From: Weizmannia acidilactici
GTDB taxonomy: Bacteria > Bacillota > Bacilli > Bacillales > Bacillaceae_C
DNA: 35,943 nucleotides
Reading direction: 5' to 3'
NCBI RefSeq assembly: GCF_008974185.1
Contig: NZ_BKZP01000033.1
Span: 1 to 35,943 of the forward strand
Below, piece by piece: positions 18,713-22,440 of this stretch. The stretch's first letter is position 1; every line of letters starts with the position of its first letter. The position numbers were made by a program, and so were the translations under genes. Under the pieces are notes generated by a model, which worked only from the letters and a program-made list of their open reading frames with translations, ran no database searches and had not been told where the DNA came from.

Positions 18713-19747
18713 CTAGTTCCGGATGGTTTTATATCCAAGCATAACGATAAAAAGAAGGCTGAAGTACCCAAATAAAGGATATAAAAAAGACAGCAGCGCC
18801 CCGTAATGCATAAAGCTGATCATGGCAATGGCAGCCAAAATCAGGGCAAACATCCGCCCGCTTTTCATTGGCATGTATTTTTGCAGCTGTTTTTCAAGCC
18901 CGTACACATCACCGATGATCGAAGTAAAAATCTCCCCGAAAATAAGTACCACATAAATAGAATAAATTGCCGGGAAACTCATTTTGACAATATGCGCCAT
19001 TGGGATTTCCACAGTCGAAACATCCGGCAGCATTATCAGCGACAAATGGCTCGAGATCAGGATGAGCATTAAAAACAACCCACCCAATATTCCGCCGGCC
19101 CGGACAATGCTTTTATCCTTTACTTCTGCCGCAAGCGGAACGAGCACCGCCTGCGCAAGCGCGAGATTAAAAGCCGCATAGGATAATGCACGGAGGATCG
19201 CGTGTGGAATCTGCCCGGTTTCCGGCCGCGCCGCAAAAGATTCGAAAAATCCTTCTGCCCGGACGGACTGCGACATCAGCAGCAGATTAAACGCAATCAT
19301 CAACGGCACGACAAACGTATTCACGCCGAGGAGGCCCTTCGTCCCGGTGCACATGACAGCAAAAGTGAGAATGATGGTGAGCGAAATGCCGGTAATCCGG
19401 CTGAGATGAAGCTGTTCCTGAAATACGGCGCCTGCACCCGACAGCATGACCCCGCACACGCCAATAAGCATGGCCATCATCAAAAAGTTCACGCCGCCGG
19501 CAAACGTTTTTCCAAATAAATAATGGTTCAATTCTTCATAGGAGTCTGCTCTTAAATCAATCGCGATTTCCATCATTTTTGTACCGAACACAATAAACAA
19601 AAGCCCCGAAAAGCAAATGGCAAATAACCCATATAATCCGAAACGCGTAAAAAACTCCGCAATTTCTTTTCCTGTCGCAAATCCGGCCCCGATGACCGTC
19701 CCGATATAGACAGCCGCAATTTGCACAGCCCCGGCCCATTGCTTCAA
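18713..19747 (-). CDS. ykvI: YkvI family membrane protein
   Basis: I chose the TTG at 19747, giving 344 residues, because AAGGGG then has about 8 nt spacing and the product starts KQWAGAVQIAAVYIGTVIGA like B. subtilis YkvI. GTG codons at 19750 and 19756 are alternatives. There are about ten membrane helices. The first carries GTVIGAGFATGKEIAEFF, a break typical of sodium-coupled transporters of the LeuT/APC fold. Transport activity is inferred only from the fold. The gene is divergent from clpE, as in B. subtilis, where ykvI also adjoins clpE. Confidence 0.88.
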   Translation of the reverse strand: MKQWAGAVQIAAVYIGTVIGAGFATGKEIAEFFTRFGLYGLFAICFSGLLFIVFGTKMMEIAIDLRADSYEELNHYLFGKTFAGGVNFLMMAMLIGVCGVMLSGAGAVFQEQLHLSRITGISLTIILTFAVMCTGTKGLLGVNTFVVPLMIAFNLLLMSQSVRAEGFFESFAARPETGQIPHAILRALSYAAFNLALAQAVLVPLAAEVKDKSIVRAGGILGGLFLMLILISSHLSLIMLPDVSTVEIPMAHIVKMSFPAIYSIYVVLIFGEIFTSIIGDVYGLEKQLQKYMPMKSGRMFALILAAIAMISFMHYGALLSFLYPLFGYFSLLFIVMLGYKTIRN

Positions 19748-19869
19748 CACCTGCACCCCTTTTAATGAAAAACATTTTACGGAAAGCCGCGGACGGGCCC
19801 CACTACTATCCTATGTATATCGGTATCAAAATAGCCCAGATAAATCGGGTTCCGCCCGCCTGAAAAATT

Positions 19870-19886
19870 GGTCAAAAAAAGTCAAA
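19870..19886 (+). promoter_or_regulatory. CtsR operator O1 of clpE
   Basis: GGTCAAAAAAAGTCAAA fits the CtsR heptad repeat RGTCAAANNNRGTCAAA exactly. It lies upstream of the first promoter. Confidence 0.85.
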
Positions 19887-19893
19887 AAAACAC

Positions 19894-19922
19894 TTTACAA
19901 CCGAAAAACATTGCCGTATACT
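19894..19922 (+). promoter_or_regulatory. clpE promoter P1
   Basis: TTTACA, a 17-base spacer and TATACT, close to sigma-A consensus. Confidence 0.75.
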
Positions 19923-19930
19923 ATAGCCAA

Positions 19931-19947
19931 GGTTAAAATTAATCAAA
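19931..19947 (+). promoter_or_regulatory. Degenerate CtsR site after P1
   Basis: GGTTAAAATTAATCAAA differs from the CtsR consensus at two positions and lies 8 bases after the P1 -10 box. Confidence 0.5.
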
Positions 19948-19966
19948 CCAAGGTGATGCGAATGAC

Positions 19967-19995
19967 TTGCGTTTTCGAAAACTTTGGTATATAAT
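19967..19995 (+). promoter_or_regulatory. clpE promoter P2
   Basis: TTGCGT, 17 bases, TATAAT. ACTTTG lies three bases before the -10, as in P3 and P4. Confidence 0.75.
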
Positions 19996-20006
19996 GTCGT
20001 TGCAAA

Positions 20007-20023
20007 GGTCAAAGATGGTCAAA
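20007..20023 (+). promoter_or_regulatory. CtsR operator O2
   Basis: GGTCAAAGATGGTCAAA, a perfect match, starting 11 bases after the P2 -10 box. Confidence 0.92.
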
Positions 20024-20060
20024 GATAAAAAGGCAAAGCTGATGTGTAATTGCAAAAATC

Positions 20061-20089
20061 TTGCATCCGACATCACTTTGTTCTATAAT
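20061..20089 (+). promoter_or_regulatory. clpE promoter P3
   Basis: TTGCAT, 17 bases, TATAAT with internal ACTTTG. Confidence 0.78.
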
Positions 20090-20100
20090 TAAGCTGTAAA

Positions 20101-20117
20101 GGTCAAAGATGGTCAAA
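20101..20117 (+). promoter_or_regulatory. CtsR operator O3
   Basis: GGTCAAAGATGGTCAAA, identical to O2, again 11 bases after its -10 box. Confidence 0.92.
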
Positions 20118-20140
20118 CAAAGTGCACGGAAGCAAATCAA

Positions 20141-20169
20141 TTGCATCTTGTGAAACTTTGATTTATACT
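20141..20169 (+). promoter_or_regulatory. clpE promoter P4
   Basis: TTGCAT, 17 bases, TATACT with internal ACTTTG. Confidence 0.75.
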
Positions 20170-20180
20170 TTTGCAATAAA

Positions 20181-20197
20181 GGTCAAAGTAAGTCAAA
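20181..20197 (+). promoter_or_regulatory. CtsR operator O4
   Basis: GGTCAAAGTAAGTCAAA, perfect consensus, 11 bases after the P4 -10 box. Confidence 0.92.
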
Positions 20198-20225
20198 TCA
20201 CTTTGATCTGTTTTTCAATTAAATT

Positions 20226-20242
20226 AGTCAAAGATAGTCAAA
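20226..20242 (+). promoter_or_regulatory. CtsR operator O5 near the clpE ribosome site
   Basis: AGTCAAAGATAGTCAAA, consensus. It is preceded by ACTTTG at 20200 and a decayed -10 position (TGTTTT) with the same 11-base spacing, but has no -35. It looks like the remnant of a fifth module. Confidence 0.88.
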
Positions 20243-20271
20243 ATCAAACCGATCAAAGGGAGGAATGTTTG

Positions 20272-22440
20272 ATGCTTTGCGACAAATGCCATCAAAACGA
20301 AGCAACGATCGGAATGCATATAAATGTGAACGGAAATCAAAAAACATTAAACTTATGCCAGTCTTGCTACCAAAAAGAACGTGCAAAATTTGAAAACAGC
20401 TGGGGAGGTATGTTTATGAATAACGGATTTGGAAATTTCGGAGGTTTTGGAGGCTTTGGCGACTTCAATGATCTCTTTAACCAAATGAATGTGAACGGAT
20501 TCCAGCCGAACGGCGCAAAACAAACCGTGCAAACCCAAACGCAGGGCGGCGGCAACGGATTTCTTGACCAATTCGGCCGCAACTTGACGGCCGCTGCAAG
20601 AGCCGGCCAGATCGACCCTGTCATCGGGCGCGACGAAGAAATTGCGCGCGTAATCGAAATTTTAAATCGCCGCAATAAAAACAATCCGGTCTTAATCGGT
20701 GAACCTGGCGTCGGGAAAACTGCGATCGCAGAAGGACTTGCTTTAAAAATCGTTGAAAAACAGGTTCCTGCAAAATTGCGCAATAAAGAAGTTTATTTGC
20801 TTGATGTTGCATCCCTTGTCGCCAATACCGGCATCCGCGGCCAATTTGAAGAACGGATGAAAAAATTGATTGCTGCACTTGAACAGCAAAAAAATGTGCT
20901 CATCTTTATCGATGAGATCCATCTGCTCGTTGGCGCTGGTTCTGCTGAAGGTTCGATGGACGCAGGCAATATTTTAAAACCGGCGCTTGCCCGCGGCGAA
21001 ATCCAAGTCATCGGGGCGACGACTTTGAAAGAGTACCGGCAAATCGAAAAAGACGCTGCACTTGAACGGCGTTTCCAACCGGTCCAAGTCAATGAGCCGG
21101 GCCTCAATGAAACAGTCATGATTTTGCGCGGCTTAAAAGACCGGTATGAAAAATACCATCACGTCACTTATACCGATGAAGCGATCGAAGCTTGCGTAAA
21201 CTTGTCGCACCGATATATCCAAGACCGCTTCTTGCCGGATAAAGCGATCGACTTAATGGATGAAGCGGGCTCGAAATTGAACTTGACAATCACCGTGCCA
21301 AGCAAAGAAGATATCCAAAAACGGCTCGCGGAAATTGCGCAGGAAAAACAGGCTGCGCTCGCGAAAGAAGATTATGAAAAAGCAGCTGAACTGAAAAAAG
21401 AAGAAGAGAAACTGCAGGAAATGGCTGCATCAGGCCAAGAAGCTTCAAAACCGGTAGTGGATGTTGTGCAAATCCAGGAAATCGTTGAAAAGAAAACGGG
21501 CATTCCTGTCGGCAAACTCGAAGCGGATGAAGCGCAAAAATTACAGCATCTTGAAGAAAACCTGGCTGCAAAAGTGATCGGCCAGGAAGAAGCGGTCAAG
21601 AAAGTTGCGAAAGCGATCCGCCGTTCACGCGCCGGCCTGAAAGCGAAAAACCGCCCGATCGGTTCCTTCCTGTTTGTCGGCCCTACCGGCGTCGGGAAAA
21701 CGGAATTGACAAAACGTTTGGCGGAACAATTGTTCGGCACGAAAGATGCGATGATCCGCCTCGACATGAGCGAATACATGGAAAAACACAGCGTTTCGAA
21801 ATTGATCGGTGCCCCTGCCGGATACGTCGGTTACGAAGATGCGGGGCAATTGACGGAGAAAGTGCGCCACAACCCGTACAGCATCATTTTGCTGGACGAA
21901 ATTGAAAAGGCGCACCCGGATGTTTTGAACATGTTCCTACAAATTTTGGACGACGGTCGCTTGACCGATGCGCAGGGCAGAACGGTCAGCTTCAAAGATA
22001 CCGTCATTATTATGACAAGCAACGCAGGCACCCAATTTAAGCATAAAGAAGTAGGATTTGCGAAGAGCGAAGCGATCAAAGAATCGAATATCCTCGACTC
22101 TCTCGGCGAATTCTTCAAACCGGAATTTTTGAACCGTTTTGACAGCATCATTGAATTCAAATCGCTTGAAAAAGAACATTTGATCAAAATTGTGGATTTG
22201 ATGCTCGGCGAATTGAGTGAAATGTTGAAAGAACAAGCGATTACGCTTGAAGTATCGGAAGAAGCAAAAGAAAAAATCGCTGACCTCGGTTATGACCCGG
22301 CATTTGGCGCACGCCCGATCCGCCGTGTCATCCAGGAAAAAGTGGAAGACCGGATTGCCGACTTTATTCTCGACCATCCGGAAGTGAAAAACTTAAAAGC
22401 GGAAGTCCGCGGCGGCGAAATTGCCATTGCTGCGAAATAA
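20272..22440 (+). CDS. clpE: ATP-dependent Clp protease ATP-binding subunit ClpE
   Basis: The ATG at 20272 has GGGAGG nine bases upstream and gives 722 residues; a longer upstream frame would run through the CtsR operators. The N-terminus is the ClpE zinc finger with Cys3, Cys6, Cys29 and Cys32. A Gly/Phe-rich linker follows ([12 protein letters not shown]). AAA+ module 1 has Walker A GEPGVGKT and [16 protein letters not shown]-type coiled coil has [20 protein letters not shown]+ module 2 has [20 protein letters not shown] and [13 protein letters not shown]. The C-terminal D2-small domain has [16 protein letters not shown]. ClpE unfolds proteins for ClpP and helps inactivate CtsR during heat or thiol stress. 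Transcription is clearly CtsR-controlled. Confidence 0.98.

What the first reader, a model, noticed from the sequence alone, without database searches (positions are those of the whole stretch)
19870..20271. clpE control region is a tandem array of promoter-plus-CtsR modules
Three modules (P2, P3, P4) share one layout: TTGCRT, 8 bases, ACTTTG, 3 bases, TATAMT, 11 bases, then a perfect CtsR operator. A fourth upstream promoter (P1) is followed by a degenerate operator, and a fifth module near the ribosome site has kept ACTTTG, the 11-base spacing and the operator but lost its promoter boxes. A further operator lies above P1. The likeness extends into the spacer, pointing to tandem duplication rather than chance. 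Such a stack could set a steep heat or thiol response, or give cumulative repression. CtsR control of clpE is established; the amplified, decaying module array is what deserves a look.
Basis: seen in the sequence. Interest (0 to 1): 0.78.

Follow-up and report, generated by a model that had tools for sequence, protein, structure and literature searches.

The report
Stacked stress-controlled promoters before clpE
The heat-shock gene clpE in this Bacillus relative is preceded by an unusually long stack of on/off switches, most of them pairing a repressor site with what looks like a second, stress-activator site; both regulators of this gene are known from Bacillus subtilis, so this looks like an amplified version of a known kind of control.

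Summary
The layout is real. Window 19870-20242 holds five CtsR operators with intact heptads plus one degenerate one; P2, P3 and P4 share the stated spacing exactly, and 0 of 2000 shuffles gave one such promoter frame. CtsR control of clpE from several sites and promoters is already described in B. subtilis. New here: (1) Of 131 clpE upstream regions this array is the largest by operators, half-sites and promoter+operator modules (typical: 2-3 operators, one module). Across the order GC sits at -44 in 30 of 128 clpE promoters, against at most 3 at any other position from -64 to -37. (3) P1 with its operators is shared with two other genera; P2-P4 are a genus feature with gains and losses. (4) Two other lineages look separately amplified. 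Tandem duplication is not shown for the window: outside the shared boxes its modules are about as alike as chance. Best reading: an amplified stack of Spx-activated, CtsR-repressed promoters. There are no transcript or binding data, and this genome's own trxA, trxB and ctsR promoters do not show the -44 element.

The parts
19870..19886 (+). CtsR operator above P1
   Evidence: GGTCAAAAAAAGTCAAA, 0 mismatches; counterpart in all 5 genomes held for the genus
19894..19922 (+). P1, TTTACA-17-TATACT
   Evidence: 10 of 12 to the sigma-70 consensus; this promoter type is in 9 of 131 regions: the 5 of the genus and G007, G008, G026, G027 of two other genera of the family
19931..19947 (+). degenerate CtsR operator after P1
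   Evidence: 3 mismatches to the strict consensus; only 1 heptad mismatch in G002 and G003
19957..19995 (+). P2: Spx-like TGCG at -45..-42, TTGCGT 19967-19972, ACTTTG 19981-19986, TATAAT 19990-19995
20007..20023 (+). CtsR operator of P2
   Evidence: 0 mismatches
20051..20089 (+). P3: Spx-like TGCA at -45..-42, TTGCAT 20061-20066, ACTTTG 20075-20080, TATAAT 20084-20089
   Evidence: one of 3 matches of GCA-N6-TTGC-N19-TATAMT in the whole genome
20101..20117 (+). CtsR operator of P3
   Evidence: 0 mismatches
20131..20169 (+). P4: Spx-like AGCA at -45..-42, TTGCAT 20141-20146, ACTTTG 20155-20160, TATACT 20164-20169
   Evidence: another of the 3 whole-genome matches
20181..20197 (+). CtsR operator of P4
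   Evidence: heptads 14/14, centre GTA
20200..20205 (+). ACTTTG of the decayed fifth module
   Evidence: 26 bases before the operator as in P2-P4; the last module of G001 has TTGCAA and TATTTT at the box positions
20226..20242 (+). CtsR operator next to the ribosome site
   Evidence: 0 mismatches; an operator (up to 2 heptad mismatches) lies within 90 bases of the start codon in 108 of 131 regions
20272..22440 (+). clpE, 722 aa, the controlled gene
Evidence: double-AAA Clp ATPase. N-terminal 40 residues match the McsA model weakly

Best explanation
The region is an expanded stack of promoters under double control. An older promoter (P1, with an operator above and a degenerate one below) is followed by three genus-type modules and a decayed fourth. 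Each intact module joins a Spx-type -44 element and a weak TTGCRT -35 (activation under thiol or heat stress) to a CtsR operator 11 bases below the -10, about +6 to +22 if transcription starts at the usual distance. Inferred working: CtsR on each operator blocks its own promoter, and the lower operators also hinder polymerase coming from the promoters above, so the off state is tight; when CtsR is released, several Spx-assisted promoters fire in parallel. Shown: the sequence layout, how extreme the array is, the conserved operators and -44 position, and the presence of CtsR and Spx genes. Inferred: that Spx acts here, that all four promoters are active, and that the operators act in series.
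For: Operators and layout far beyond chance. CtsR gene and a Spx protein above the NCBIfam cut-off in the same genome. With a fixed 17-base spacer, GC stands at -44/-43 in 9 of the 10 non-P1 modules of the genus that keep both boxes, against 0 of 5 P1 promoters. Order-wide, GC is at -44 in 30 of 128 clpE promoters, one per genome, from 15 family labels (22 of the 30 read AGCA), against at most 3 at each other position from -64 to -37. In B. subtilis trxB, AGCA at -45..-42 and GC at -33/-32 are needed for Spx activation (PMC2801614, passages). B. subtilis clpE is described as completely repressed at 37 C by five CtsR sites, driven by two sigma-A promoters and positively regulated by Spx (PMC12634643, passages). 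Of the 3 whole-genome matches to GCA-N6-TTGC-N19-TATAMT, 2 are P3 and P4 and the third stands before an FMN-dependent azoreductase gene; reversed control 0.
Against: No transcript or binding data. P2 has TGCG, P3 TGCA; only P4 has AGCA. P1 and the last module of G001 lack the -44 GC. The automatic scan, which chose the -35 register by score, put GC at -44 in 5 of 16 genus promoters and one base off in 4; the 9 of 10 rests on fixing the spacer at 17. The trxB A-run (-41..-36) is only partly present (AATGAC, AAAATC, AATCAA). In this genome trxA has TCGCAT but AACA, a pattern scan found no such site before trxA or trxB, and the ctsR promoter has no GC at -44 with spacers 16-18. 98 of 128 clpE promoters lack it.
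Confidence: 0.6

Rival explanations
1. CtsR-only array: the modules are plain weak sigma-A promoters with operators, and the -44 GC has no role here.
For: The CtsR operators are the strongest signal; trxA, trxB and ctsR of this genome do not show the -44 AGCA; 98 of 128 clpE promoters lack GC at -44.
Against: Sharp position effect order-wide (30 of 128 against at most 3) and 9 of 10 genus modules.
Confidence: 0.2
2. Birth and decay without advantage: operators and promoters are gained and lost, one or two promoters do the work, and the rest are relics.
For: P1 operator degenerate here; the stretch that aligns with P3 is decayed in G002 and G003; the fifth module has lost its boxes; modules near chance outside the boxes.
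Against: Boxes stay intact while the rest has diverged, which suggests constraint; repeated units are also seen in G020 and G092.
Confidence: 0.3
3. The GCAA-N5-TTGC inverted repeat at -44..-32 is the operator of another regulator rather than a Spx element.
For: P3, P4, and the last modules of G002, G003 and G004 read GCAA-N5-TTGC.
Against: All but one of the 32 promoter rows outside the genus with GC at -44 have TTGAAA, the other TTGAGT, so no inverted repeat; P2, both G001 modules and the middle modules of G002 and G003 break the symmetry.
Confidence: 0.08

Closest known systems
clpE control region of Bacillus subtilis (CtsR regulon, Spx-activated)
   Same: Several CtsR sites, more than one sigma-A promoter, Spx activation reported (PMC12634643, passages)
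   Different: Reported as two promoters and five sites. Window: four promoter candidates, ten intact heptads, or five intact operators plus one degenerate. Whether 'five sites' counts operators or heptads was not checked in the original paper. In 114 of 131 regions an operator lies inside the -35/-10 stretch; in none of the 5 of this genus.
Spx-activated trxB promoter of B. subtilis
   Same: GC at -44/-43 and at -33/-32 (PMC2801614, passages)
   Different: No CtsR operator at trxB (recalled); here three such promoters stand in a row, each with one
clpE regions of G092 (L197) and G020 (L120)
   Same: Repeated units: four copies of a 40-base operator stretch 120, 121 and 97 bases apart in G092; 88- and 54-base stretches repeated at 174 and 176 bases in G020
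   Different: Other spacer sequence and -35 boxes; apparently separate amplifications (inference)

Membership tests
CtsR regulon | RGTCAAA-NAN-RGTCAAA direct repeat at the promoter | tested here: met
CtsR regulon | ctsR gene in the genome | tested here: met
   operator before it
CtsR regulon | binding by CtsR and derepression on heat | not testable with these tools
   needs footprint and expression data
Spx-activated promoters | AGCA at -45..-42 with G-44 and C-43 indispensable | tested here: met
   GC exact in P2, P3 and P4; full AGCA only in P4 (TGCA in P3, TGCG in P2); absent in P1
Spx-activated promoters | GC at -33/-32 | tested here: met
   TTGCGT, TTGCAT, TTGCAT in P2, P3, P4; not in P1
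Spx-activated promoters | Spx protein present | tested here: met
Spx-activated promoters | same element at known Spx targets of this genome | tested here: not met
   trxA has AACA and TCGCAT; pattern scan found none before trxA or trxB. Only these two were looked at, and their real promoters are unmapped
Spx-activated promoters | Spx-dependent transcription | not testable with these tools
   needs expression or in vitro data
Tandem duplication of modules within the window | likeness between modules outside functional boxes | tested here: not met
   9, 13 and 8 of 28 positions, 7.8 expected; only P2/P4 reaches p 0.02, uncorrected; TRF found only the two period-10 operator repeats

The most novel reading that the evidence does not exclude
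clpE control regions are repeatedly amplified, in at least three lineages, into serial arrays of a composite Spx-on/CtsR-off cassette; the copy number sets how tight and how steep the severe-stress response is, and the ACTTTG box is an extra element that the cassette of this genus needs.
Probability: 0.3. Interest if true: 0.58.

Novelty: new variant of a known kind. Interest (0 to 1): 0.45.

Why it matters
It offers a natural copy-number series (two to four promoter+operator modules within one genus, one in most relatives) for asking whether stacked repressor-activator promoters make a stress response tighter or steeper, and it proposes a DNA element for the reported Spx control of clpE that point mutations can test.

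Tried and rejected
Tandem Repeats Finder (score 30 and up) gave only two period-10 operator repeats. The simple promoter scan found P1 and one site overlapping it, not above shuffles, and none of P2-P4. ACTTTG as an extended -10: rejected by inspection, it lies too far up. ACTTTG before the last operator order-wide: weak at best; [CT]TTTG starts at -25 in 4 of 108 regions and at the unrelated offset -54 in 5. RNA hairpin in the P4 leader: z -1.27, 22 of 200 shuffles fold as well. One-mismatch operators elsewhere in the genome: 11 of 17 matches, against 6 matches of the reversed control; no clpP operator was identified. Named comparators: 80 loci came back; 14 whose match reaches the ClpE N-terminus were read: 6 (L025-L028, L033, L034) have 2-3 operators, 2 (L031, L032) have 1, 6 (L029, L030, L035, L036, L038, L049) none; L049 did not begin at a usual start codon.

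Papers: Rochat 2012 is not held; the Derre 1999 papers were not read (known only as cited in PMC12634643 and PMC10212131). Passages, not whole texts, were read of PMC12634643, PMC5506225, PMC2801614 and PMC10212131. Searches whose listings I saw: 15 of 15; 11 of 11; 15 of 5387; 8 of 10; 10 of 26; 8 of 26; 8 of 60; no listed title or abstract start dealt with amplified clpE promoter arrays, and full texts of the rest were not opened.

Rows dropped or short: G089 was left out after because its contig ends at the gene, so one search counts hold 132 rows and later ones 131. G244 gave only 279 bases. G126 begins a few bases off its start codon. The 132 are 112 of the 156 genomes that matched among 299 of the order plus 20 more of the family search (29 of 34 matched); 44 matched genomes were not fetched.

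Full report
Observation. P2, P3 and P4 each read TTGCRT, 8 bases, ACTTTG, 3 bases, TATAMT, 11 bases, CtsR operator. There are five operators with all 14 heptad letters right and a degenerate one after P1. One small correction: the P4 operator has GTA where the consensus wants NAN. In 2000 dinucleotide shuffles of the region no TTGCRT-8-ACTTTG-3-TATAMT frame appeared (3 observed) and at most one operator (5 observed). The strict operator occurs five times in the 3.19-Mb genome, four times here and once before ctsR. Against this, a plain sigma-70 scan of the region is not above its shuffles (2 found, 1.5 expected) and misses P2-P4.

How unusual. I compared 131 clpE upstream regions, 31 of the window's family and 100 of other families of the order. 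With up to two heptad mismatches in 450 bases, 132 regions (one truncated one, G089, still included) gave 2 operators in 82, 3 in 40, 4 in 5, 5 in 4 and 6 in 1; the one with six is the window, and it also has most operators with 14/14 heptads (5; next 3). It has most half-sites (10; next 8). Promoters with an operator 6-14 bases below the -10: none in 22 regions, one in 96, two in 8, three in 4, four in 1, again the window. The five genomes held for the genus are all among the first six when ranked by operators with at most one mismatch. The amplification is therefore real, a genus trait, and strongest here. Caveats: 44 of the 156 order genomes with a match were not fetched, one contig was short (G244), and promoter counts depend on a simple consensus.

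Age of the parts. A TTTACA-17 promoter like P1 occurs in 9 of 131 regions: the five of the genus and four genomes of two other genera of the family (G007, G008, G026, G027), there too with an operator above and one 10 bases below. In 114 of 131 regions an operator lies inside the -35/-10 stretch, in none of the five of this genus; P2-P4 have it only below the -10. An operator within 90 bases of the start codon is common (108 of 131). In the genus, G001 has two ACTTTG modules, the second at the ribosome-site operator with TTGCAA and TATTTT, so the window's fifth module is probably a decayed counterpart, although the alignment splits that G001 module between P4 and the fifth. G004 has one module with ATTTTG; G002 and G003 have a last module with ATTTTG and 13 bases before the operator and a middle promoter without ACTTTG; the stretch that aligns with P3 is decayed there. 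But duplication is not demonstrated in the window: leaving out the boxes, P2/P3, P2/P4 and P3/P4 share 9, 13 and 8 of 28 positions against 7.8 expected (shuffle p 0.28, 0.02, 0.56). Either the duplications are old or the modules were built piecemeal. Two other regions show longer repeats: G092, of another family, has four copies of a 40-base stretch around its operators (68-75% to the first), and G020 repeats an 88-base and a 54-base stretch (72% and 70%). Arrays have thus probably arisen more than once.

The missed element. Upstream of the -35 boxes, P2, P3 and P4 have TGCG, TGCA and AGCA at -45..-42, and TTGC at the -35 puts a second GC at -33/-32. In B. subtilis trxB, AGCA at -45..-42 (G-44 and C-43 indispensable), an A-run at -41..-36 and GC at -33/-32 are what Spx activation needs (PMC2801614, passages); the A-run is only partly present here. 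Taking one best promoter per genome with a 17-base spacer, GC stands at -44 in 30 of 128 clpE promoters, from 15 of the family labels, while no other position from -64 to -37 exceeds 3; 22 of the 30 read AGCA. In the genus 9 of 10 non-P1 modules that keep both boxes have it with the spacer fixed at 17, and 0 of 5 P1 promoters; the automatic scan, choosing the register by score, saw 5 of 16 at -44 and 4 one base off. A whole-genome search for GCA-N6-TTGC-N19-TATAMT gave three matches: P3, P4 and one before an FMN-dependent azoreductase gene; that such genes respond to thiol stress is recalled. A Spx protein and CtsR are encoded. Against: trxA of this genome has AACA with TCGCAT, a pattern scan saw no site before trxA or trxB, the ctsR promoter lacks the -44 GC, and 98 of 128 clpE promoters lack it.

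What is known. A 2025 paper states that B. subtilis clpE is driven by two sigma-A promoters, completely repressed at 37 C by five CtsR binding sites, most affected on induction because of their number, and positively regulated by Spx (PMC12634643, passages). So the kind of control is known. The new points are the size and modular layout of this array, the -44 element as a candidate for Spx action at clpE across the order, and the apparently repeated amplification.

Mechanism. CtsR just below each start would block its promoter, and the lower operators would hinder polymerase from the upper promoters; release of CtsR with Spx at work would let P2-P4 fire together. The first part follows from CtsR biology; the series effect and the multiple active starts are inference. 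The ACTTTG box is conserved while its neighbours are not, so it probably matters; its reverse complement CAAAGT resembles the end of a CtsR half-site with its trailing GT, which was not tested.

Noticed in passing
window 20181-20208: The P4 operator start (GGTCAAAGT, 20181-20189) and the following ACTTTGATC (20200-20208) form an inverted repeat at the expected 5' end of the P4 transcript. In G002 and G003 the pairing letter differs on both sides (CAAAGC/GCTTTG). The RNA fold is not clearly better than shuffles.
   Followed up: partly
window 18713-19756 (minus strand): The divergent 347-aa open frame above the array matches no Pfam or NCBIfam model at E 0.001. By eye, similar sequence lies above clpE in G004, G020, G137 and G158.
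   Followed up: no
window 19807-19816: TATCCTATGT stands between the divergent frame and the array; ATCCTATGT recurs above clpE in all 5 genomes of the genus and in G020, not in G137 or G158, the only other ones looked at. Possibly a control site of the divergent gene.
   Followed up: partly
L139 (G000:C13:13473-13510): An FMN-dependent azoreductase gene has the same GCA-N6-TTGC-N19-TATAMT promoter frame as clpE P3 and P4.
   Followed up: partly
control list: The Pfam CtsR search rang in 1 of 14 control genomes (Lactococcus lactis) and not in Bacillus subtilis, which is known to have CtsR (recalled); the control genome or the first look may be incomplete.
   Followed up: no
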